A stretch of DNA of 34,544 bases from Krasilnikovozyma curviuscula (taxonomy: Eukaryota > Basidiomycota > Tremellomycetes > Cystofilobasidiales > Mrakiaceae): the NCBI GenBank assembly GCA_014825775.1, contig MVAQ01000228.1, forward strand, positions 1-34,544. The letters are read 5' to 3'. Position 1 is the first letter of the stretch, and every line of letters begins with the position of its first letter. Position numbers and translations under genes: made by a program. The notes beneath the pieces were generated by a model, which was not told the origin of the DNA, ran no database searches, and was given only the letters and a program-made list of their open reading frames with translations. This document shows positions 1 to 34,502 of the stretch, piece by piece.

Positions 1-967
1 CCATAGTTGACTGCCTTCCCAGAACCATGCATAATACATGTCAGGCGAGAATTGCTGCTGGGTGTTGATAGTCAGGACTTTTGGGGATCCAGAACCAGCT
101 GAAGATTCGCCCTTGTCCACTCGCAGGAAGAAAGTTCTGCGGGATGTCAAGTACAGAATGATCGCAACGGTAATCAGTGTAAAGAAAAGACATCCCTTTC
201 GGGGATTATGAGAATGTCAAAATCACTTACAATGGAATCAAGCTACCCATGATAGATGCAGCCTCTTCTTCGTTCGTTGCTTTGGGGGCCCTTCTCAGCT
301 TAGCATATGCCGGAGATAGTATTGCTTTCAATGCTGATTTGCCTATCACACAATGCGTGTCAGTACGGCGTGGTAGGCCATTCATTAGAAGAGCGAGGAA
401 AGACCACCAAGCTTGCGCCTGTAGTCGCGGTTGATTGCACTCCAAACTATCTCAACTCATTACATTGATAACTTGAGTTTGCAATATCATCATGGTTACT
501 TACCTTTGAAGTAATCCACTCGTTTTCCGTTAAGGACACCGCTTCTAATTTTTGGTCCATGTTTTCCTCGTAAAAAAGATATCACGGCCTTTTGTTCAGC
601 AGCAGCCTGAGATAAGGATGATTGAAGCAAAATTGTCGTCAATGGGCCAATGTTCGATATCCCATCGATCAGTCGGGAGGGCACGAGGATTCGAAGCGTG
701 ACGTTGGATCAACCAACAAGTAGGCGAAAGTACACCCAGTAAAACAAAAGACGGTGTGAGTACACATGTTAATAAGAGTAACAATACAGAGTAGTGTCAG
801 ATGTCCAGAGCTAGCGGCATTGCTTCGCTTGAGAAAATGACGGACTGACCTTTTTTCTACGACGGTGGAATGAGGGATGAGAAAGGAAGCGTTGAAACCG
901 TGGTAAGCTTTATCTTCCAAAGATTGGAGGAATCCTATCGAAAACCAGCTCACTGATTTTCTTCCAT
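1..967 (-). CDS. SEC62: Sec62, ER preprotein translocation subunit (N-terminal part, cut by window edge)
   Basis: Sec62 works with Sec61/Sec63 in post-translational protein import into the ER. Three exons are clear on the minus strand: 606-504, 342-231 and 136-1. They join in phase and give the family hallmark GVLNGKRVDYFKGKSALK, then LSPAYAKLR, then TFFLRVDKG and MYYAWFWEGSQL. These are the conserved cytosolic N-terminal domain; the two membrane segments lie beyond base 1. The introns are 503-343 and 230-137. The very N-terminus is less certain: a model that fits phase uses an ATG at 967 (exon 967-954), a 7-nt exon at 856-850 and then the acceptor at 607. Identity is firm; the first two tiny exons are inference. 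The gene runs in the same direction as PPE1, which lies upstream of it. Confidence 0.88.
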
Positions 968-3829: not shown

Positions 3830-5903
3830 CTATCTTAGGGACAGCGGAACACCCCCTACTGGAATCCGTAACACATCGAATTCATCCGCCTCCCAGGCCC
3901 CTCGGACGAGCGCTGGTAAAGATTCTAACGCAGGCAGCAGCGACTCATATGGGTCCTTTAAAACAGCCACTACCGATGGTTTGATTCCACCAATCGGAAG
4001 CGCCGAGCTAAAAGAGCTTGCTCCAAATGCAGATTGCGGCGTTGAAACTGTGGGGCTTGAGAAAGAGGAGGTGCCAAAGACCGACGTAGTGGGGGCTGTA
4101 GTTAATAAAGCTTGTTGTAGTGGCGTGGCACCGAATGCTGAAGCTGGAGCTGGGCTGGAAGACGCAAAGGCTGAAGCGACAGGTGGCGCAGACGGCTGTT
4201 GAGGATGAGAGAATGCCCCAAAGGAACTATCTGCAGCCGGTATGACTGGCGGTTGACCGAAGGCTGTTACGGACGATGTGGTATTGGTTGGAATTAAAGG
4301 TTGTGCGGCTGATTGGCCAAAGGCGGAAGGCTGACCGAATGCTGACGGCTTCCCAAAGGCACCGAACCCACCAGTTGATATCCCAGAACTTGGTGCAGGT
4401 ATTGGCATTGAAGCCGATGGCTGACCAAATGGTGAGGAGGTTGTGGCTGCCTTGCCCGCAAAAGCTCCAAATGCGCTGGCGGAGGGAGCTGCAGCACCAA
4501 ACGTGCTGGGAGTACCAAATGCACTACCGGTTGTTGATTGGCCGAAATTAGATGGTTGACCAAATGAGGATGGTGGTGCCGTTGTCGATGGCTTGGATGT
4601 TGCAAAGGCACCAAAAGCACTGGGTGTGGAGGCTGCTCCAAGTGAAGGTCTGGCAGTAGTAACACCAAACGCTGACTGGCCGAACCCAGAGCCTCCAAAT
4701 GCAGAAGTGTTCGTTACTGGCTTTAAGCTCGATCCCTCGAAAGCTTTACCTCCGCCCCCTCCAAAAACAGAAGGGGCACCAAACATACTTGTTGCACCAA
4801 AGGGAGTTTTTGCAACTTGTGATGTTGGGAATGCTGAAGAAGGAGGTGTGGTAGTTGCTGGTCCGAACGAGCTGGGCGCCCCAAAAGCGGATGAGGGAGC
4901 TGTTGAAGGTGTAGATTTGTTCGCAAAGGCACCAAACGCAGACGATGCGCCAAACACACTGCTGCCGGTGGAAGGCGCTGTACTGTTGCTTGAGAATGCA
5001 CCGAACCCACTCGATGAGCCGAACGCTGGCTTTGATGTTGAGGTTGAGGGTGCTCCAAAAGCAGATGTGGTTCCAAAAGTCGACTGGGGCGCGCTGGAGG
5101 ATCCAAAGGATGAGGTTGTAGACGATGAGGTTATCGCTGAGCCATAGAAGTTCGAAAGAGTTTGCGGTATAGAGCTTTGGAGAGATGAGTAAGTTTGGGC
5201 TGCGGAGTTGATTAGGTTATTCTCTTGTTGAAACTATTAAAATTGACACACAGAACATTTATCAGGACCGTGTTGCTCGAGAAGATAATAATGAGTCTTA
5301 GAGGCTCACATATTGATCCGGTTGCATGATTTTTGTGGACATCCTCAGTTCTTCTGGTGAAACATCTAGTGTTGACACAATATTCTTTTGCGAGGAAGGA
5401 CCGTAACTGCTGAGGGGATACGTCGGCTTCTCATCTATAATGTCAACTCTAACCGCAGCTTCACTGTGTTATATCATGGTGTTGACAAAAGAAAGGTCAG
5501 AAGCTGTTGGAAACGTAGGAATGTACCATAGGACTTACGATATTTTGAGCTGCGAAGGTTCTGTCGCTGCTGCTATTGAAGGCCTTGTTGATGAGACGAA
5601 TCTGTTATTGTTGTTACTACTGCTGTTATTCCAAGAGGATCCTGCGTGGTGAGGGAGGTCAGCACAGCTAGTACCATCGAAACGACGAGAGAATGAAATT
5701 GCTCACCTCCAAAGGCCGTTGACTTGCCATTCGCCTCTGAGCCCTCCAATCCAGGAGGGTGAGCATTCCTACAGCTGGACCCAAATGAGCATTTACCCTT
5801 CAGGTAGAAAGAGCAGACTTGGCCTTGGCCAGGCTGAATGAATATTGCAAGGAGTGAGCAGCAGCGTGCAAGCACGAAAGAAGCAATGAACAGTACTTAC
5901 CAT
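3830..5903 (-). CDS. NUP42: FG-repeat nucleoporin with CCCH zinc finger (NUP42/Rip1-like)
   Basis: Cytoplasmic-face nucleoporin that anchors Gle1/Dbp5 for mRNA export. Exons on the minus strand: 5903-5901, 5833-5707, 5641-5539, 5463-5310, 5221-3830; 592 aa. A single CCCH finger sits at the extreme N-terminus (C8-x7-C16-x5-C22-x3-H26, in VCSFYLKGKCSFGSSC). An Asn/Ser-rich linker and a conserved-looking segment (DEKPTYPLSSYGP, LDVSPEELRM) follow, then about 350 residues with roughly 30 FG dipeptides, mostly AFG and FGAF. The C-terminus (EADEFDVLRIP, then V and P residues) resembles the Gle1-binding tail of Nup42. The first exon is only the ATG; its donor GTAAGT directly follows the start codon. 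The CCCH finger plus FG plus tail order distinguishes it from Nup98-type FG proteins. Confidence 0.85.
3990..5110 (-). repeat. FG-repeat coding tract within NUP42
   Basis: Low-complexity protein-coding repeat with about 30 FG dipeptides spaced by Ser, Thr, Ala, Pro and Gln. Frequent units are SAFGA, SAFGQPS and GAFGAF. The DNA repeats are imperfect (variants of CAAAGGCACC on the plus strand), so the repeat is maintained at protein level rather than by recent DNA duplication. Confidence 0.85.
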
Positions 5904-11015: not shown

Positions 11016-13650
<2,635 letters not shown>

Positions 13651-26500: not shown

Positions 26501-27606
26501 TTAAGTCGCTGGGCGCAAAGCTCTCAGCCTGAGTACATGTGAAGAAGAACCGACATCAGATTCGGAATACCCAAAATTCGATCCAGGGTGAATGTGAACT
26601 GAAACCAACCTGTCTGCTAATCTATCATCCTCCTCGCCGACTTTCTCAGTTGCAGCTGGCTCCACCGCAAGGTTCTTCTTCACGCCTTCTAGTCCACCTT
26701 GGCCAAGCTCATGCTGAATTTCCAAACCAGCCTCATCAGCAACCTGCTGCATCAGCAAATCCACTTGGTCCTGTGGTGTCGTGGTAGCTGTAGTAGATGA
26801 CATTGTTGATTCCATGTACGAAGTTTGGACGTCCAAGTCGGTGAATTGAGATTCAAACTTGTCCATCACTAGTGAAATCTTGGTCCCACCAACCAAGGAA
26901 ACATTTTGAAAGAAAAAAAAGGCGGACATGTTAGCCAGAGATACACCTACACACACGCACAAGGAGCGAACTGAACCTGTGCTTACCCTCTCCAGGTTCA
27001 TGTTCTCCATAGCTTTGTCCATCCCTCGAACAACGTTTGTCATGCTTCCAGTCACCTATATTAAGGCCAATCATTTGATAGTCTGAGCCATTGTTCAACA
27101 TAGGTCTTCATTCGGTGTCGCTTACCTGCTTCATCGTCACCGCCGTCTCGACTCGACTGGCGACGGCATCGATCCTACTGCCCAGCCTCAGGAGATTTAG
27201 AGCTTCATTCTTCTTCCTGATGACGTTCGAAGCGTATATTCTAGCGCCTTCTGTGTTGCCCTGTTGCAGAGCCTGTTATGGGACGAAAAAAGGCGTTGTG
27301 AGGAGACTTGATGTGAGGGTAGATAAGCATCAAACGAGACATTTCTTCTCTCACCTTCTTCAGCTTTGCCTTTTCTGCATTTTCATCCTTTTGTGCCTTC
27401 TTTGACTGACGCTGGAGCTGCTTGGCGGTGAACTGGAAGCAAAAGAGCAAGGACAGCGTCAGAGAGGATCTTACCAGTGGAAAGCAGATTGATTACCTTC
27501 AGGTTAAATAGGGATTCTGGAAGCAGGCAGTTGTTCAGTTTCTCAAACTACTTTCAGAATCAAGAGAGAGTATGAGAGATCTGTACTTACTTTCGAGTGC
27601 ACTCAT
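26501..27606 (-). CDS. DID2: ESCRT-III associated protein Did2/Vps46 (CHMP1)
   Basis: ESCRT-III subunit that recruits and regulates the AAA ATPase Vps4 during multivesicular body sorting at endosomes. Exons on the minus strand: 27606-27591, 27516-27497, 27432-27355, 27272-27126, 27055-26987, 26878-26610, 26528-26501; 208 aa. It starts [20 protein letters not shown], followed by the basic helix [87 protein letters not shown] and [20 protein letters not shown]. The C-terminal [12 protein letters not shown] is a good MIM1 motif for binding the Vps4 MIT domain. These features are specific to CHMP1/Did2 rather than Vps2. Exons 1 and 2 are only 16 and 20 nt. It is divergent from PNG1, with 215 bp between start codons. 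Confidence 0.95.
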
Positions 27607-27821
27607 CGTGAGAAATAATAGAGGATGGCGTTGTGAAGCACCTCGAACTGGAATCGTCGGAACGACAGGTTCCCCAGTGACGATCATTTCGCCTAGAAAT
27701 CCCAAATTGTGAGAGGACATTGTCTACTGCCTATGTTCTTCAAATCTTTATGAAATGCCCTCGTTCTAGTTCTCACCTATTAGATCAACCGACTGCTATT
27801 CCTCTTCGCCTTGCCCTTGGA

Positions 27822-29995
27822 ATGTCCAGCTACTCACAGCTTGTGGATGGTTACATCTCTCACTGTCTGAGGCAGCACATATCTGTTGGGATACCCAAGT
27901 CTCCAAGTTCAGCGGAAATCTTTGTGTTGGGTCAACTCCTTGCTAGAGAAACAAGCTCGACAACTGACACCCTCCAGGTGACAGCAGATCCAAATCTCTT
28001 TCACCATATCGCCCGCCTCGATAAAAGCTCCGACGAGTATGAAGATAGAAAGCTGCTTGCCCTAGCCTTCAAGGAGCTACCAGAAGATTTCCTCTCAAGC
28101 CCCACACCACCGCTGCCATCGCACGTCCCTAAAGACGATCCCCCATCAGCCCTTGCTTACAAGCTCGTCACTTGGTTCCATAAGTGTTATTTCAAATGGG
28201 TGGATCCGGTAATTTGCGAGGCATGCAACGGTAAAACACAGTCGATTCGAGTCGATGGCCCTTCTTCCCCAGACGAAGTGTCGGGAAAAGCAGGACGTGT
28301 CGAAATTCATGAGTGCCAAAGCTGCTACCACTTGACTAGATTCCCGAGGTACAACAGTCTACCTCACTTGATCAGGTCAAGGATTGGCCGCTGCGGAGAA
28401 TTCGCCTTTGTGTTCCAATTCTTCCTGCGCGCGCTGGGATTACGAGCTCGCTATGTCTGGAAGTGAGTCATGACGCTCAAAGTAAAGCCTAATCAAGCTC
28501 ACACCACTGACACTCTGTGTATTTTAGTGCTGAGGATCACGTGTGGAACGAATACTTCTCTAAGAGCTTGAACAGATACGTCCACATCGATTCGACGGAA
28601 GGAAGTATCAATACGCCTCTAATCTACAGTAGAGGTTGGGGAAAGAAAATGACATGGGTTCTTTCGTTTGGAATTGAGGGGGCTAGAAACGTTTCAAGAG
28701 GATATGGTGCTACTGGCGGGCCGGGAGTAGAAGATGTGGAACGAGTAAGTAAAACTTAGCCAGGAACTCTGCAATATCAATGACTGACATATCAAAACGT
28801 AAAACCAGGTACTTGGCAGCATCACATCTAATCGTCGGTCATCTCTCTCTTCTCCGCAGCAATCAAATCTCGAGGAGTCAGATCTCGTCGAACTTGCATG
28901 GCTGCAAGATGATGAAGGCAGACTAGAAGAAGCGAAACATCAAGAGATGACTGGGAGGACCTCAGGATCTCTTGAATGGAGGAGAAACCGAGGTGAAATA
29001 GCAAGGTATTCAGCTTCATCTACTTCTGGAAAGTCCGTTCTTTCAGAGGCGGACTTCGACCTTCTGAAAGCACGTAGCCATCACATTTGGACGCTAGGGC
29101 CACCTCCTGCAAGCTCCAAATCTTTAACTTTAACGTCACCACCTACATTAAATGGCTCAGCGAAACTCCTTCCAGGCACCTCCTTCAACCCAACTCCAAT
29201 CATCAGATTAACATCTTCGGCCCCCTCTCAAACATCGTCCTCATTCGTTCCAACTTCCATCTCAGCTTCAGATTCGTTTATGTGCGAGTTCTCTTTCAGG
29301 ATATCAACACCATCGAAGAGCGTTGGTGCTGATGGCATGGCGTTCATCGTCCATTCCTCACCAGAAGGGCCTTCCGCAGTGGGAGAGGGGGGGCACGGGT
29401 TAGGCTATGGTGGGATCACTCCTGGATGGTTGGTCTCATATTCTCTTCTATGGGATCATCTCATCCTTCACTGACCTCTGTCTCTCGTTACAGGGCGGTC
29501 GAGATAGACACATATCAAACGCAAGATCGGACTCAAGACCCGCCTTGTCCACATATCTCGCTCCACTCACCGCCCGACCCTCACCACTCCAACAGCTTGG
29601 CTTGCACCTCTTCCCCAGATCATCTACCGCCCCTGGTAGATGGAAGAGAGTACAGGATGAGGATCAGATGGAATTCTCAAAATAGAAAAGTGGAGGTATG
29701 GCTCGGTGACTCGATTGAAGCTGGATTCACTTTTATCTTTGGGAAGGAAGGTGTTGGTTTGGCAGCTAAGGAAGAGGAACGGGTTTGGATAGGAGTGACT
29801 GCCAGTTGTGGTGGTCTCTTTGAATCTGTGAGTTTTTCTTTGCTCTTTCTTGGTTGTAGCGTTAATATAAAAGTGGTGGGCTCGAGAAATGGGATCGATC
29901 GGTGGTCGATATATGGACAGAAGGCAAGCTGACATCGATTATGGACTGATTTCGTTTAGCATGACGTTCTAAAGTGGGACTTGTGGATACTATAA
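27822..29995 (+). CDS. PNG1: Peptide:N-glycanase (PNG1) fused to a C-terminal L-type lectin domain
   Basis: Png1 removes N-glycans from misfolded glycoproteins exported from the ER to the cytosol. Exons: 27822-28462, 28528-28744, 28809-29428, 29494-29827, 29960-29995; 615 aa. An in-frame ATG at 27750 is an alternative start. Residues 1-340 are the transglutaminase-like core: zinc-binding pairs C132-x2-C135 and C165-x2-C168, and an intact triad Cys191 (GRCGEF), His218 (EDHVWNEY), Asp235 (HIDSTEG), then RGWGKKMTWVLSF and the usual fungal tail GRTSGSLEWRRNRGE. Residues about 378-615 look like an L-type (legume/bacterial) lectin: DGMAFIVHS, GGHGLGYGGI, AVEIDTY (Glu496, Asp498), DPPCPHISL (Asp508, His513), EYRMRIRWN, WIGVTASCGG and HDVLKWDLWIL. 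Exon 3 alone contains both the Png1 tail and the start of the lectin, so the fusion is read directly. The lectin assignment is by motif memory. Confidence 0.88.
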
Positions 29996-30333
29996 ACTGA
30001 TGTTGAACGATTCCGTTGAAGTTTCCTGCGAGCTTGAGCCAATAGGAAGCGCCAACAACTTTGTTTTGGTTTTGACGTTGCGGCCGCACCGCCAACGCAA
30101 GCGTCCTCGCCACAGCAAGGAAACGGCAAAACGACGAACCTAGCTGACTTCCGTTTTGACTCAATCAGCAGCTTCAGAACTTCTCTTAGAGAGTAAACTT
30201 TTCACGTCGATTGAGGTTTCCCTCGAATGTGAGCTTTGCTCGATGGTTTTTGCTTCAAAGCTTCTGATCAGAAGTTTTCATTTTTTTTTTGGCTGCTTCT
30301 GACAACTTTGCCGACCGCCAGTTCTTTCTACGG
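29996..30333. other. Intergenic region between PNG1 and the PPR gene
   Basis: 338 bp. Holds the PNG1 3' flank and the promoter of the PPR gene. A GCGGCCGCACCGCC-like GC-rich patch lies near 30080. No gene is seen. Confidence 0.5.
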
Positions 30334-33300
30334 ATGCTTGTTCTCCTCAAGGGGGCAGCCCAAGTCAGAAATGCAGCCAGTCCCATCGTCAGGATCGCAT
30401 CCCAGCCCGTGCTGCAGTCGGATGGCACAAAACCCCTGCCAGGCGTCGCAGGCAGACGAGCAGCGATAGCATACAAACGAAACCTGCAATCTTCATCAAA
30501 ACAATCATTGATATCCCTCTTGCCAACAGAGAGACCTGGCTCAAGCAATTTCACTATCGAAACCCTCAGCCCCCAGTGCAGCAGCTCACTTACCCTTTCC
30601 CAGGTTCAAGCTAGGTTCAAGCATGCATTCGCAGAAGGTGATGCTGAGCATCAGGTGGAAGGACATGACGAGGAGGGAAGGCACATAGAAGGAGAGGATG
30701 GTCGTCTGGTAGAGCTGGAGGAAGAAGGTGAAGTCCGTTCGGAGGAGCTGAAGCACAGGCCTGCCGCAGAACGGGAGGTAGACTACACTACCACCAAATC
30801 AGCTACTCCAATCAGAAGGAAGCAACCTCAACAGCCCAAATTGAAGAGCCTGGCCTCCCCAGTACCTCCCAGCACCCATTCCCACAGCCTCGACCTCGAC
30901 CTCGCATACCGACAAAACATCCAGGATTTGACCTTCCACCCTTCCCTTCACCACACCATCAAGGGTTATATCGCCAAAGCATCCGGAAAATCAGCTATCC
31001 CAGTATCGACTGATACATTCAATGTTGCTTTGACCGCCCTCACTGCTGCCAGAAAGCCTCGCCAGCCTATCACCCAAATTCTCCAAACTTACAACGCTTT
31101 GCTGGAAAGGAACGGCATCCCAGACCTTCGAACATACGAGACCCTCATCACTTTGCTATGTACCAGAGATGCCGAGGTTTCTCAGTTGCTTGAAGAGTCT
31201 TCAAATCGAAAACTCGAAGATCAGTTGGCGTTCGCGCCGAGTCGTCCGTTGTTCACTAATTGGGTCCAATCTGACGATGAATCTGTAAGTTTGAGACTCC
31301 CGAAGCTTAATTTTTGAATGTAGTTTGATTACTAATTGTTTCTTTGCTCACTTTTCAGAAATTACCTTTGCGCAATGACCAAGCGCTGAAGCAGGAGCAG
31401 AATCTTACTTCAGCTAGAACCCTGTTACTTGCCACCGTCGCTACATTTCCGAACGAGAAACTTTCAATCTACGTTTATAACGCGGTACTCAACTCACTGG
31501 CTCGACATTCTCTTGTGGAAACGTCTATCAAAGTGTTTGCTCAGATGGAGAGAGCTCAGATCTCACCAACATATGAGACCTTCAAGAGCTTGGTTGATGT
31601 GTATGCATCGGTAAAGGATGTTACCGGCGCATTAGAGGTGTTCGAAGAATTTGATAAGGTTCACAGAGAGGGTGGGATTGACACCCAATCAAGGTATGTG
31701 AACCTCGATTCCCGGATCGGAGACTTCTTCACTTTCTAACTTCACTTTGTATTTATCTTTTGATGCAGTCCTCTTGGAAGTGTTGTTGTTTGGAATGCGT
31801 TAATTAATGCCCACATTTGTGTCGGCGATGCAGCTTCGGCTTTAGTCTTAGTTGACCAGATGTCCAGCGCTACCTCGCCTGATCAGTTTGTGCCACCAAT
31901 TACCCCATCAACCATCACAACACTCATTACTAGCTTCACCAAGAATGGAGATCTTGAAACTGCTCTTGAGTGGTACCGCCGATCTCTGCCAGTGACTCAT
32001 GGTCTTCCCGAATCCGACCCAGCAACTTCGCAGTCAGAGTTCTTACCACTCGAAGCTCAAGCCCATAGATTCCTGCTCAACCACAGCTATTTCAACAATG
32101 ATCCGGCAACCTATCACTATGTGTACTCTCAATGCCCAGACGAGGTATTGACACATGTCGACTTGGAAAGGGAACTCTGCATGAGGATCTACGAGGCGAT
32201 GACTACGAAGGAAACAGAGTCAGCGAAGCTACATGTTCAATCCATCATCTCGAGCATACTGCGTGCTCAAAAGTCTTCTCCGAACTTGGTCATTCCTTGC
32301 TCCGTTGCAGAGCCTCTGCTTCCTTTGATGTTACAATATGGCTTCGTTGGCGAAGCTGCATCGCTCATGGATCTCACTCTTCAGTCATCATTCTCGCAAC
32401 GCAACACCACAATTCAGTACTCATTATCGTCTTTTGTCGCCTCGTGCGTTCGTCGCGTGATCGATGAGTCCTGGCCAACTTCGTCATCCGTGGAAGCTCT
32501 TTCGTTGGTTCAGTCTTGGTTGCTCTCGGCTCAAACCAAACGAGTTGTGCTAGACTACTTCTCCGAATTTGAACTTGGTCTCATCAACTTGTATCACAGA
32601 ATCAAGTCGGACAACGACATCGCTCAACTTAACTTCAGTCTTTCAACGTGGAAGCTCTTCATAAGAGCCGCCAGAGGCACCGACAGACGTACCTTCCAAG
32701 CGTTCGCCGAAACGAATAATCTACCAGATAATCATCAATGGGCGCTTCAAGAGGTGCTGGAAGACGTGGTTGCAGTTTCTAGATCTGAAAACCCTTCTGG
32801 GGGCAAGGTGGATTTGCCAACTCTCATTACAATCGCCCCAACGCTTATTGGTATTCTTGGAACTGATTCGGCTCATCAGCTCCTATCTGCCGTTAACGAC
32901 CAGTATGCAATCTCAGTGTCCGAAGAACTTTCAATGTCTGAAGTTGGCACCTTTGACGCACCGTTGAACGTCATGGCACCAGAATTCCGACCAGTTTCAC
33001 AGGCGTCTTTTAAAGAACCGACGCTCAAGTACGACGATCGTCTATCCATGGAAGTCAACAAGGATCGTGGACGCTCTTCCAAAGGTGGAGGGGCGTACAA
33101 GACAATCAACGCAATGGGTTCTTACAACGTTTTGAAAGCGGGCGTCAAACAGGGTTTCACCGTGTCACCAACCGATCTTGCGTGGCTCCTCGAAGCTCTG
33201 TCTAGAGAGAATGTCAGCCGTAACATCATTCTCGACGTTATAGCCCTTGCACACCAGGGTATTGAGGAACTCTTGGACACTATCCCAGCCAAAAAATCTG

Positions 33301-34502
33301 CTTGGATTGCTGTTGAAAATGCTTGCATCATTGCATTCGCTTCACTCGAGGACCTCAAAACCGCTAACTTTCACAGAATCAGGCTCATTGATAGTGGCTC
33401 TTCCCCTACCGCAGCTGCATACGCAGCTTTGATCCAGCGAGCTGTTGACACGACCGATGATGCTTCTGTCGCAATGGCTTTGTATACTGAAAGTCGCCAG
33501 TTAAGTGTAAAACCAACCCAATTTCTCTTCAATACTACTTTGGCCAAGCTTTCTCATGCTCGAAAAGCCGAACAGGCAATGACTGTCTTTGACGACATGA
33601 TTGCTTCTAGAGTTGCTCCGTCGGCTATCACTTACGGGACTCTGATCGTGAGTCATTGAGCGTTCTGATCTTGCAACAGCTCCCCTAACCAATCTTTTTT
33701 TCTTCGACGTGTGGTCAGAATGCCCACTGTCGTGTCGGCAATATCGCTAAAGCTGAACAACTCTTTGTCGAGATGCTGCAAAGCAATTTCTCCGCAATGA
33801 GAGCTGTACCTTTCAAGTCAGTACAGCTTCTATAATATCCTTGTTCTGTGTAGTGATACTGAAAATATTATCCTACAATTTACAGTACCATGATCCAGTA
33901 CTTTGTTCATACTGAGCCAAACAGAAACAAAGCTACTCAATACTATGATGCTCTCCTCACGGCTGGTCTCAAGCCGTCCCCACACACCTACAAACTCCTC
34001 ATGGAGTCTTTCGCTCTCATCAGCCCACCCGATCTTGAGGCAATGAAGCGAACATTCAAGGAGCTGGAGAATGACAAGGCGTCAGAGATTCAAGGTACTC
34101 ATTGGGCGACTATGATTAATGCGTACGGTACTATTGCCAATGGTGAGTACGCTGTCAAGAGATTTCGTGACTTCCTGCGAACTGATGACTAACTTACTTC
34201 TTTGGTACCCACAGATGTCGACACTGCTATCTCTATTTTTGACTCCATATCTCGGCACCCAGCTTCCAAGGATCCATCCCGTCTCGCCCCTCTTCCTGAT
34301 CCAGTCTGTTGGGAAACAATCCTCAACGTCCTCATTACTCATAAGAGGTTCGGCGATTTCGATAGATACATCTCCGAAATGGAGAAGTCCAACTTGAAAT
34401 CAACCGCATACGTTCAGAATGTCATTATTAAGGGTTTCGCCGCTCGAGGTGAAATCGAGAAAGCCAGAGAGACGTTTGAAGCAATGATTGATCCACCAAT
34501 TG
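30334..34502 (+). CDS. Large pentatricopeptide-repeat protein, probably mitochondrial (3' end beyond window)
   Basis: PPR proteins bind organellar RNA and act in its processing, stability or translation. Exons seen: 30334-31284, 31359-31693, 31769-33647, 33719-33816, 33886-34142, 34215-34502; about 1269 codons so far, and the gene continues. The N-terminus (MLVLLKGAAQVRNAASPIVRIA) is basic, hydrophobic and low in acid, as for a mitochondrial presequence. Repeat-like helical pairs occur throughout: TFNVALTALTAARK, YVYNAVLNSLARHSLVETSIKVF, YETFKSLVDVYASVKDVTGAL, VVVWNALINAHICVGDAASAL, ITYGTLINAHCRVGNIAKAE and TYKLLMESFALI. I cannot tell which fungal PPR factor this is. The start is the ATG at 30334; the same frame is open upstream but without an ATG. 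Confidence 0.85.

What the first reader, a model, noticed from the sequence alone, without database searches (positions are those of the whole stretch)
27822..29995. Peptide:N-glycanase fused to an L-type lectin
A catalytically intact Png1 (Cys191, His218, Asp235, two CxxC pairs) runs straight into a domain with the order of an L-type lectin: DGMAF, GLGYGGI, VEIDTY, DPPCPHI, strand RMRIRWN, and VTASCGG-x4-HDVLKW near the end. The Glu-x-Asp, Asp and His that bind metal in legume lectins appear kept (496, 498, 508, 513); the sugar-contacting Asn of ConA (Asn14 region) is not obvious. Animal PNGases carry a different C-terminal sugar-binding domain (PAW), so this would be an independent way to give the enzyme a glycan-binding arm. 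I do not know how widespread it is in basidiomycetes.
Basis: partly seen in the sequence, partly recalled or inferred. Interest (0 to 1): 0.8.

Follow-up and report, generated by a model that had tools for sequence, protein, structure and literature searches.

The report
Deglycosylating enzyme with ancient lectin arm
This fungal gene encodes the cell's sugar-stripping enzyme for misfolded proteins with a sugar-binding-type domain attached, a layout already reported in slime moulds that looks inherited from early fungi and amoebae rather than newly invented.

Summary
Window 27822-29995 (+) encodes a 615-residue cytosolic peptide:N-glycanase (Png1) with intact Cys-His-Asp triad and four zinc cysteines, running in frame into an L-type lectin domain (PF18483, E 6e-25, above cut-off). 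'Independent invention' is not supported: the same fusion occurs in Amoebozoa, Heterolobosea, Ichthyosporea, chytrids, Blastocladiomycota, Mucoromycota and other basidiomycete yeasts (96 of 171 PNGase-core proteins collected), and was published for Dictyostelium and Naegleria in 2012. PNGase lectins form one side of the lectin tree (92/96, not quite starred) and share residues rare in stand-alone lectins; one AU test (p 0.161) leaves separate origin open. A motif, GRxSGSxEWRxxRGE, ends the core; lectin, PAW, jacalin or PUL may follow, and 35 of 68 lectin-less proteins with the motif stop within 24 residues of it. Most likely the lectin is ancestral, lost in many Dikarya and kept here, with PAW in its place in animals. 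Four of five metal ligands and the loop A Asp and loop B Gly are kept, but the Asn that touches calcium and sugar is Thr here, and Ser/Thr in most collected PNGase lectins. Glycan binding is likely but unproven.

The parts
27822..28462 (+). exon 1 (aa 1-213): N-terminal region, zinc cysteines C132/C135/C165/C168, catalytic C191 (codon 28392-28394)
28528..28744 (+). exon 2 (aa 214-286): catalytic H218 (28538-28540) and D235 (28589-28591)
28809..29428 (+). exon 3 (aa 287-492): core tail, hinge motif, first half of the lectin including ADG (D461) and GEGG (G480/G481)
28953..28997 (+). hinge motif GRTSGSLEWRRNRGE (aa 335-349), after which different C-terminal domains follow in different PNGases
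   Evidence: coincides with the first positions (1-20) of the Pfam PAW model
29145..29428 (+). L-type lectin domain, first half (PF18483 match starts at aa 399)
29494..29827 (+). exon 4 (aa 493-604): metal and sugar loop E496, D498, T502 (in the ConA Asn14 place), D508, H513; HHSNSL; TASCGGLFES
29960..29995 (+). exon 5 (aa 605-615): last lectin strand HDVLKWDLWIL and stop
28463..28527 (+). intron 1 (65 bp, GT-AG); retention gives an immediate stop
28745..28808 (+). intron 2 (64 bp, GT-AG); retention gives an early stop
29429..29493 (+). intron 3 (65 bp, GT-AG, donor GTTGGT) inside the lectin; the junction GW|AVEIDTY matches Mrakia GWVVEVDTY
29828..29959 (+). intron 4 (132 bp, GT-AG)

Best explanation
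The gene is the fungus's cytosolic PNGase (Png1/NGLY1 family). Shown by sequence: zinc-ribbon and transglutaminase-fold core with intact triad, a widely kept hinge, then an L-type lectin domain. Inferred: the core cleaves the Asn-GlcNAc bond of misfolded glycoproteins pulled out of the ER, and the lectin arm holds the high-mannose part of the same glycan to raise substrate affinity, doing the job that PAW is proposed to do in animals. Inferred too: the lectin arm is an old inheritance (at least the fungal stem, probably older), lost in Ascomycota and Agaricomycetes by truncation just after the hinge, and retained in Tremellomycetes-like and some Pucciniomycotina yeasts.
For: Domains and catalytic residues. 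In the 22.4-Mb genome the only two places found for this lectin family are two exons of this gene. Fused relatives in named species of seven groups (96 of 171 TG-core proteins, window included). PNGase lectins are one side of the lectin tree, support 92/96. Shared marks, counted without gapped rows: Ser/Thr at position 502 in 5/5 of the basidiomycete set (window, P0001, P0002, P0026 and the unnamed P0025) and 73/87 other PNGase lectins against 2/25 lone; D504 5/5, 73/85, 2/16; H523 5/5, 77/86, 1/17; Q/E603 5/5, 86/87, 6/22. The 45 highest-scoring matches printed for the window's lectin, itself included, are all PNGase lectins. The core tree puts lectin-bearing basidiomycetes inside Dikarya (99, quick tree); grouping them with Mucoromycota is rejected (p-AU 3e-6) and so is one clade of them apart from lectin-less basidiomycetes (p-AU 0.022; both groups named after seeing the tree). 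The hinge is present in 159 of 171; 35 of the 68 lectin-less proteins with it end within 24 aa of it. Four of five metal ligands are kept.
Against: ConA Asn14 is Thr502 here and Asn stands there in only 12 of the 96 PNGase lectins; that Asn contacts calcium and sugar, so binding may be weak or altered. The lectin tree does not formally reject basidiomycete lectins grouping with lone bacterial ones (p-AU 0.161), and its 92/96 split is below the starred level; it holds no ERGIC-53 or legume lectins. Some non-fungal PNGases lack the lectin too: P0181 Selaginella, P0177 (prefix suggests the ichthyosporean Ichthyophonus), P0162/P0163/P0180 with PUL only, so an older ancestry than fungi is less sure. 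Lectin-less relatives of P0025 (P0032, P0033, P0038) are unnamed gene calls that could be truncated predictions, and they weigh on the 0.022 test.
Confidence: 0.8

Rival explanations
1. The lectin domain is present but no longer binds sugar; it serves as a scaffold, a stabiliser of the core or a binder of another ligand.
For: The calcium- and sugar-contacting Asn is Thr here and Ser or Thr in 78 of 96 PNGase lectins; L-type lectin domains without monosaccharide binding are described (arcelin 1, DORN1: PMC5008829 passages). Cytosolic calcium is low (general knowledge).
Against: Asp461 (94/96), Gly481 (93/96), E496 (94/96), D498 (93/96), D508 (86/96) and H513 (90/96) are kept across PNGase lectins, which is hard to explain without selection on the site; Ser/Thr or D504 might replace Asn (inference).
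Confidence: 0.25
2. The lectin was joined to Png1 independently in basidiomycete yeasts.
For: Lectin-less Agaricomycetes and Ascomycota lie around them in the core tree; the AU test does not reject basidiomycete lectins grouping with lone lectins (p 0.161).
Against: Same hinge, lectin starting a median of 33 residues after it (range 15-64), best tree, shared residues and best matches all among PNGase lectins.
Confidence: 0.08
3. The whole gene came by horizontal transfer from Mucoromycota or an amoeba.
For: Those groups carry the fusion.
Against: The core sequence nests in Dikarya (99) and the grouping with nine Mucoromycota/Calcarisporiella rows is rejected (p-AU 3e-6). Amoebae were not tested this way.
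Confidence: 0.02
4. Annotation artefact: Png1 ends before the lectin, which is a separate gene or pseudogene.
For: No RNA evidence; intron 3 has a non-consensus donor GTTGGT.
Against: Open frame over 318 codons, homology runs across the junctions, fusions annotated independently in Mrakia, Naematelia, Kwoniella and others.
Confidence: 0.03

Closest known systems
Dictyostelium discoideum PNGase (Q55FC8) and Naegleria gruberi PNGase
   Same: PNGase core followed by a C-terminal legume-lectin-type domain (PMC3502110, passages; P0119 DDB_G0268168, presumably the same protein, and P0121 N. gruberi confirmed by Pfam)
   Different: P0121 adds a PUL domain; both are far from fungi; P0119 and P0121 have Thr at the Asn14 place as here, other loop positions differ
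Mrakia frigida, Naematelia encephala, Kwoniella shivajii PNGases (P0001, P0002, P0026)
   Same: same architecture; Mrakia lectin 50% identical over 209 aa
   Different: sequence divergence only; database names are a PNGase (UniRef, Mrakia), 'hypothetical' or 'uncharacterized' protein and 'transglutaminase-like domain'
Animal NGLY1 with PAW
   Same: same core and same hinge motif; C-terminal beta-sandwich reported to bind mannose (PMC9102325 passages)
   Different: PAW shows no sequence kinship with the lectin; window matches only PAW positions 1-20, below cut-off
Bacterial L-type lectins (PF18483), and PDB 7elv 'legume lectin'
   Same: same domain family; profile E 5.7e-36 to 7elv
   Different: not joined to a PNGase; 17 of 25 lone lectins collected keep the Asn that PNGase lectins mostly lack
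ERGIC-53/Emp46-type ER lectins (PF03388)
   Same: L-type lectin superfamily, profile match
   Different: window scores below the PF03388 cut-off; the genome's own member lies elsewhere (C297)

Membership tests
Cytosolic PNGase (Png1/NGLY1) | Transglutaminase-fold core with Cys-His-Asp triad | tested here: met
   PF01841 E 3.6e-10 above cut-off; aligned to 1x3w, 3esw, 2f4m; C191/H218/D235 invariant in five proteins
Cytosolic PNGase (Png1/NGLY1) | two CxxC zinc pairs | tested here: met
   C132, C135, C165, C168 invariant in five proteins
Cytosolic PNGase (Png1/NGLY1) | deglycosylates denatured glycoproteins | not testable with these tools
   no assay
L-type lectin domain (PF18483/PF00139) | profile match over most of the domain above the curated cut-off | tested here: met
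   PF18483 positions 11-209 of 215, 88.7 bits against 78.3; PF00139 49.1 against 26.3
L-type lectin domain (PF18483/PF00139) | beta-sandwich fold | tested here: inconclusive
   sequence profile aligns to solved L-type lectins across the domain; structure prediction not available
L-type lectin domain (PF18483/PF00139) | metal ligands Glu, Asp, Asp, His | tested here: met
   E496, D498, D508, H513
L-type lectin domain (PF18483/PF00139) | loop C Asn contacting calcium and sugar (ConA Asn14 place; semi-conserved, not universal per PMC5008829 passages) | tested here: not met
   T502; Ser 59, Thr 19, Asn 12 of 96 PNGase lectins. Lowers 'works like ConA', not membership of the domain family
L-type lectin domain (PF18483/PF00139) | loop A Asp and loop B Gly of the sugar site | tested here: met
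   D461, G480/G481 (alignments to legume lectins)
L-type lectin domain (PF18483/PF00139) | sugar binding | not testable with these tools
   no assay
PAW domain (PF04721) | profile match over the domain | tested here: not met
   18.2 bits against 31.4, positions 1-20 of 197 only; hhalign probability 0.2%
ERGIC-53-like lectin (PF03388) | profile match above cut-off | tested here: not met
   19.3 bits (23.2 for the domain alone) against 24

The most novel reading that the evidence does not exclude
Cytosolic PNGase ancestrally carried an L-type lectin arm. The conserved hinge GRxSGSxEWRxxRGE acts as a fixed socket at which eukaryotes have kept (amoebae, Heterolobosea, Ichthyosporea, early fungi, some basidiomycete yeasts), swapped (PAW in animals; jacalin-type lectin or PUL in some eukaryotes not named by the databases) or discarded (Ascomycota, Agaricomycetes) the arm. 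The PNGase lectins share a modified calcium/sugar loop (Ser/Thr for Asn14, a conserved Asp two residues on) that may be an adaptation to low cytosolic calcium. This would make them a distinct cytosolic branch of a lectin fold otherwise known mainly from the ER, Golgi and outside the cell.
Probability: 0.5. Interest if true: 0.55.

Novelty: new member of a known kind. Interest (0 to 1): 0.4.

Why it matters
A 2022 review (PMC9102325; its part '5. Evolutionary Relationships of NGLY1' read, passages elsewhere) states that fungal PNGases hold only the transglutaminase domain, which does not fit the early fungi and basidiomycete yeasts found here. If the lectin arm is ancestral, the animal PAW domain replaced it, and lectin-bearing and lectin-less fungal pairs become a natural experiment on what a glycan-binding arm does for this enzyme. 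A conserved hinge followed by different sugar-binding domains also gives a concrete boundary for swap experiments between NGLY1 homologues.

Tried and rejected
Independent fusion: disfavoured by trees, residues and hinge spacing, though one AU test leaves it open. Transfer of the whole gene from Mucoromycota: rejected. PAW as a diverged L-type lectin: no sequence kinship; the folds were not compared. A close bacterial donor: one genome-contig scan with six short peptide patterns gave one Planctomycetia locus at 29% identity. RNA elements: none in the window at gathering scores and none at E up to 0.01 in 27500-30300. NCBIfam (bacterial and archaeal models): no hit. F5/8 domains in P0179 and P0185 lie N-terminal to the core, so they are not at the hinge. 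GH85 ENGase: no match in the held assembly (the control rang in one of 14 genomes); a gene cut by many introns could be missed.

Literature: nine searches, seen as listings. I opened five papers, by passages: PMC3502110, PMC9102325 (plus one section), PMC12355970 (no PNGase mentioned), PMC5008829, PMC3188802 (PNGase only as a reagent). PMC3502110 is the only one in which I saw a PNGase with a legume-lectin domain. The library holds open-licence papers only, so this is no proof of absence elsewhere.

Dropped rows and biases: the core tree used 74 of 171 TG-bearing proteins; the lectin tree 41 of 96 PNGase lectins and 24 of 25 lone ones (P0020 dropped as too short). Rows were chosen by me for having names or representing an architecture. 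One search lists the best 120 of 1892 hits to a lectin-bearing query and searches scored only part of their candidates, so counts are not prevalences. The AU tests used groups named after the tree was seen and a quick tree. Creolimax, Physarum and Ichthyophonus are my reading of accession prefixes; group names such as Heterolobosea, Ichthyosporea and Blastocladiomycota are assigned from general knowledge.

Full report
What is there. The window belongs to a 22.4-Mb, 387-contig genome; the nearest named protein found is from Mrakia frigida, so it is most likely a Tremellomycete-type basidiomycete yeast (inference). The gene at 27822-29995 (+) has five exons and four GT-AG introns and encodes 615 residues. 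Homology runs across the junctions: RYVW|NAEDHVW, VER|VLGSITSNRR (weaker), GW|AVEIDTY and ES|HDVLKW. The 318 codons of exons 3-4 stay open where 0 of 20000 single-letter shuffles do.

The enzyme. The core matches Transglut_core above its cut-off and yeast and mouse PNGase structures at E 5e-43 to 7e-41. The triad C191, H218, D235 and four zinc cysteines are invariant in the first five homologues aligned, window included. It is the only Transglut_core match found in the genome by a six-frame search.

The lectin. Residues 399-605 match PF18483 at 6.3e-25 and 438-611 match PF00139 at 6.8e-13, both above cut-off. A profile of 88 related PNGases (83 lectin-bearing and 5 lectin-less fungal rows, window not included) matches solved L-type lectins: 7elv 5.7e-36, pea lectin 4.9e-18, ERGIC-53 5.8e-18, ConA 2.2e-15. 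In the genome the family is found only in this gene, at two exons, each below the cut-off on its own; an ERGIC-53-like gene (PF03388) lies on another contig.

How widespread. Three protein searches and a local scan of the 195 proteins they listed plus the window found a PNGase core in 171 and a lectin of this type in 96 of those, three of them only partial matches (P0027, P0141, P0173). Named carriers: Arcella, Acanthamoeba, Balamuthia, Pelomyxa, Planoprotostelium, Dictyostelium, Cavenderia, Acytostelium (Amoebozoa); Naegleria, Willaertia, Acrasis (Heterolobosea); Sphaeroforma (Ichthyosporea); Mucor, Rhizopus, Phycomyces, Umbelopsis and others (Mucoromycota); chytrids such as Spizellomyces and Chytriomyces; Paraphysoderma and Sorochytrium (Blastocladiomycota); and Mrakia, Naematelia, Kwoniella and Phenoliferia (partial) among basidiomycetes. 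The named Agaricomycetes, Dacryopinax and Ascomycota in the lists lack it. So do Selaginella (P0181), a PUB-bearing protein whose prefix suggests Ichthyophonus (P0177), and several proteins with PUL alone. The lists are ranked by score to lectin-bearing queries and capped, so they do not measure prevalence.

Hinge. The core ends in GRxSGSxEWRxxRGE (window 335-349). With a loose pattern it is found in 159 of 171 core proteins: 91 of 96 with lectin and 68 of 75 without. The lectin starts a median of 33 residues later (15-64). Of the 68, 35 end within 24 residues of it; 20 of these 35 bear a fungal name. A Pfam scan of 30 of the 75 lectin-less proteins, chosen by me, found PAW in 13, PUL in 5 and jacalin in 5; in the jacalin and PUL cases mapped (P0165, P0178, P0162, P0163) the domain follows the hinge. 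The first 20 or so positions of the Pfam PAW model are this hinge, which explains weak PAW matches in lectin-bearing proteins. PAW and the lectin show no sequence kinship.

Ancestry. In the core tree (74 of 171 rows, quick method) Dikarya form one side of a branch at 99, with lectin-bearing basidiomycetes inside; the lectin label needs 12 changes on this tree, of which starred branches force only 3. Holding the six lectin-bearing basidiomycete rows together is rejected at p-AU 0.022, and joining them to nine Mucoromycota/Calcarisporiella rows at 3e-6; both groups were named after the tree was seen. In the lectin tree (65 rows) all 41 PNGase lectins are one side of a branch at 92/96, just under the starred level. 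Forcing basidiomycete lectins with the 24 lone lectins is not rejected (p-AU 0.161), which counts against certainty. Shared residues lean the other way: see Best explanation. Since the early fungi and amoebae listed carry it, loss in Ascomycota and Agaricomycetes is the simplest history (inference; trees without an outgroup cannot tell gain from loss).

Sugar site. Across the 96 PNGase lectins, Asp at 461 is kept in 94, Gly at 481 in 93, Glu 496 in 94, Asp 498 in 93, Asp 508 in 86, His 513 in 90. The place of ConA Asn14 (window Thr502) is Ser in 59, Thr in 19, Asn in 12; in 25 lone lectins it is Asn in 17. The mapping agrees with the alignment to legume lectin 3ipv; the ConA numbering is recalled. 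The canonical site is described in PMC5008829 (passages), which also notes that its residues are not universal. So the metal scaffold looks to be under selection, while the sugar contact is altered across most of the family.

Mechanism. Most likely the arm holds high-mannose glycans of retrotranslocated proteins while the core cuts at Asn, as proposed for PAW. GH47 mannosidase family members are present in the genome and no GH85 ENGase was found, so PNGase may be the main cytosolic N-glycan release enzyme here (inference). Sugar binding is not shown.

Known or new. Dictyostelium PNGase was described with a 223-residue C-terminal legume-lectin domain, and Naegleria likewise, in 2012 (PMC3502110, passages). 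A 2022 review says that fungi hold only the core (PMC9102325, passages, one section in full). The basidiomycete case is a new member of a known kind; the ancient-arm-and-socket picture is the part that may be new.

Noticed in passing
window 26501-27492 (-): ESCRT-III gene next to PNG1 on the other strand, CHMP1/Did2-like by eye; a hand-spliced piece matches Snf7 (PF03357, E 2e-12).
   Followed up: partly
window 31764-33659 (+): Pentatricopeptide-repeat protein (PPR_2, E 7e-15) downstream of PNG1; frame 30268-31317 may be its first exon.
   Followed up: no
window 12798-13385 (+): Last part of a V-type ATPase alpha/beta subunit (PF22919 E 8e-16).
   Followed up: no
window 3830-5233 (-): Long open frame rich in SAFG/FG repeats, nucleoporin-like by eye; no Pfam match.
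   Followed up: no
P0165, P0169, P0171, P0176, P0178: PNGases with a jacalin-type lectin domain (mapped after the hinge in P0165 and P0178), sources unnamed: another sugar-binding arm at the same place.
   Followed up: partly
P0003, P0006, P0121, P0088 and others: PNGases with a PUL domain in addition to the lectin; in P0121 it follows the lectin. PUL is known from p97/Cdc48 partners (general knowledge).
   Followed up: no
own genome: No GH85 ENGase found by a six-frame family search of the held assembly.
   Followed up: partly
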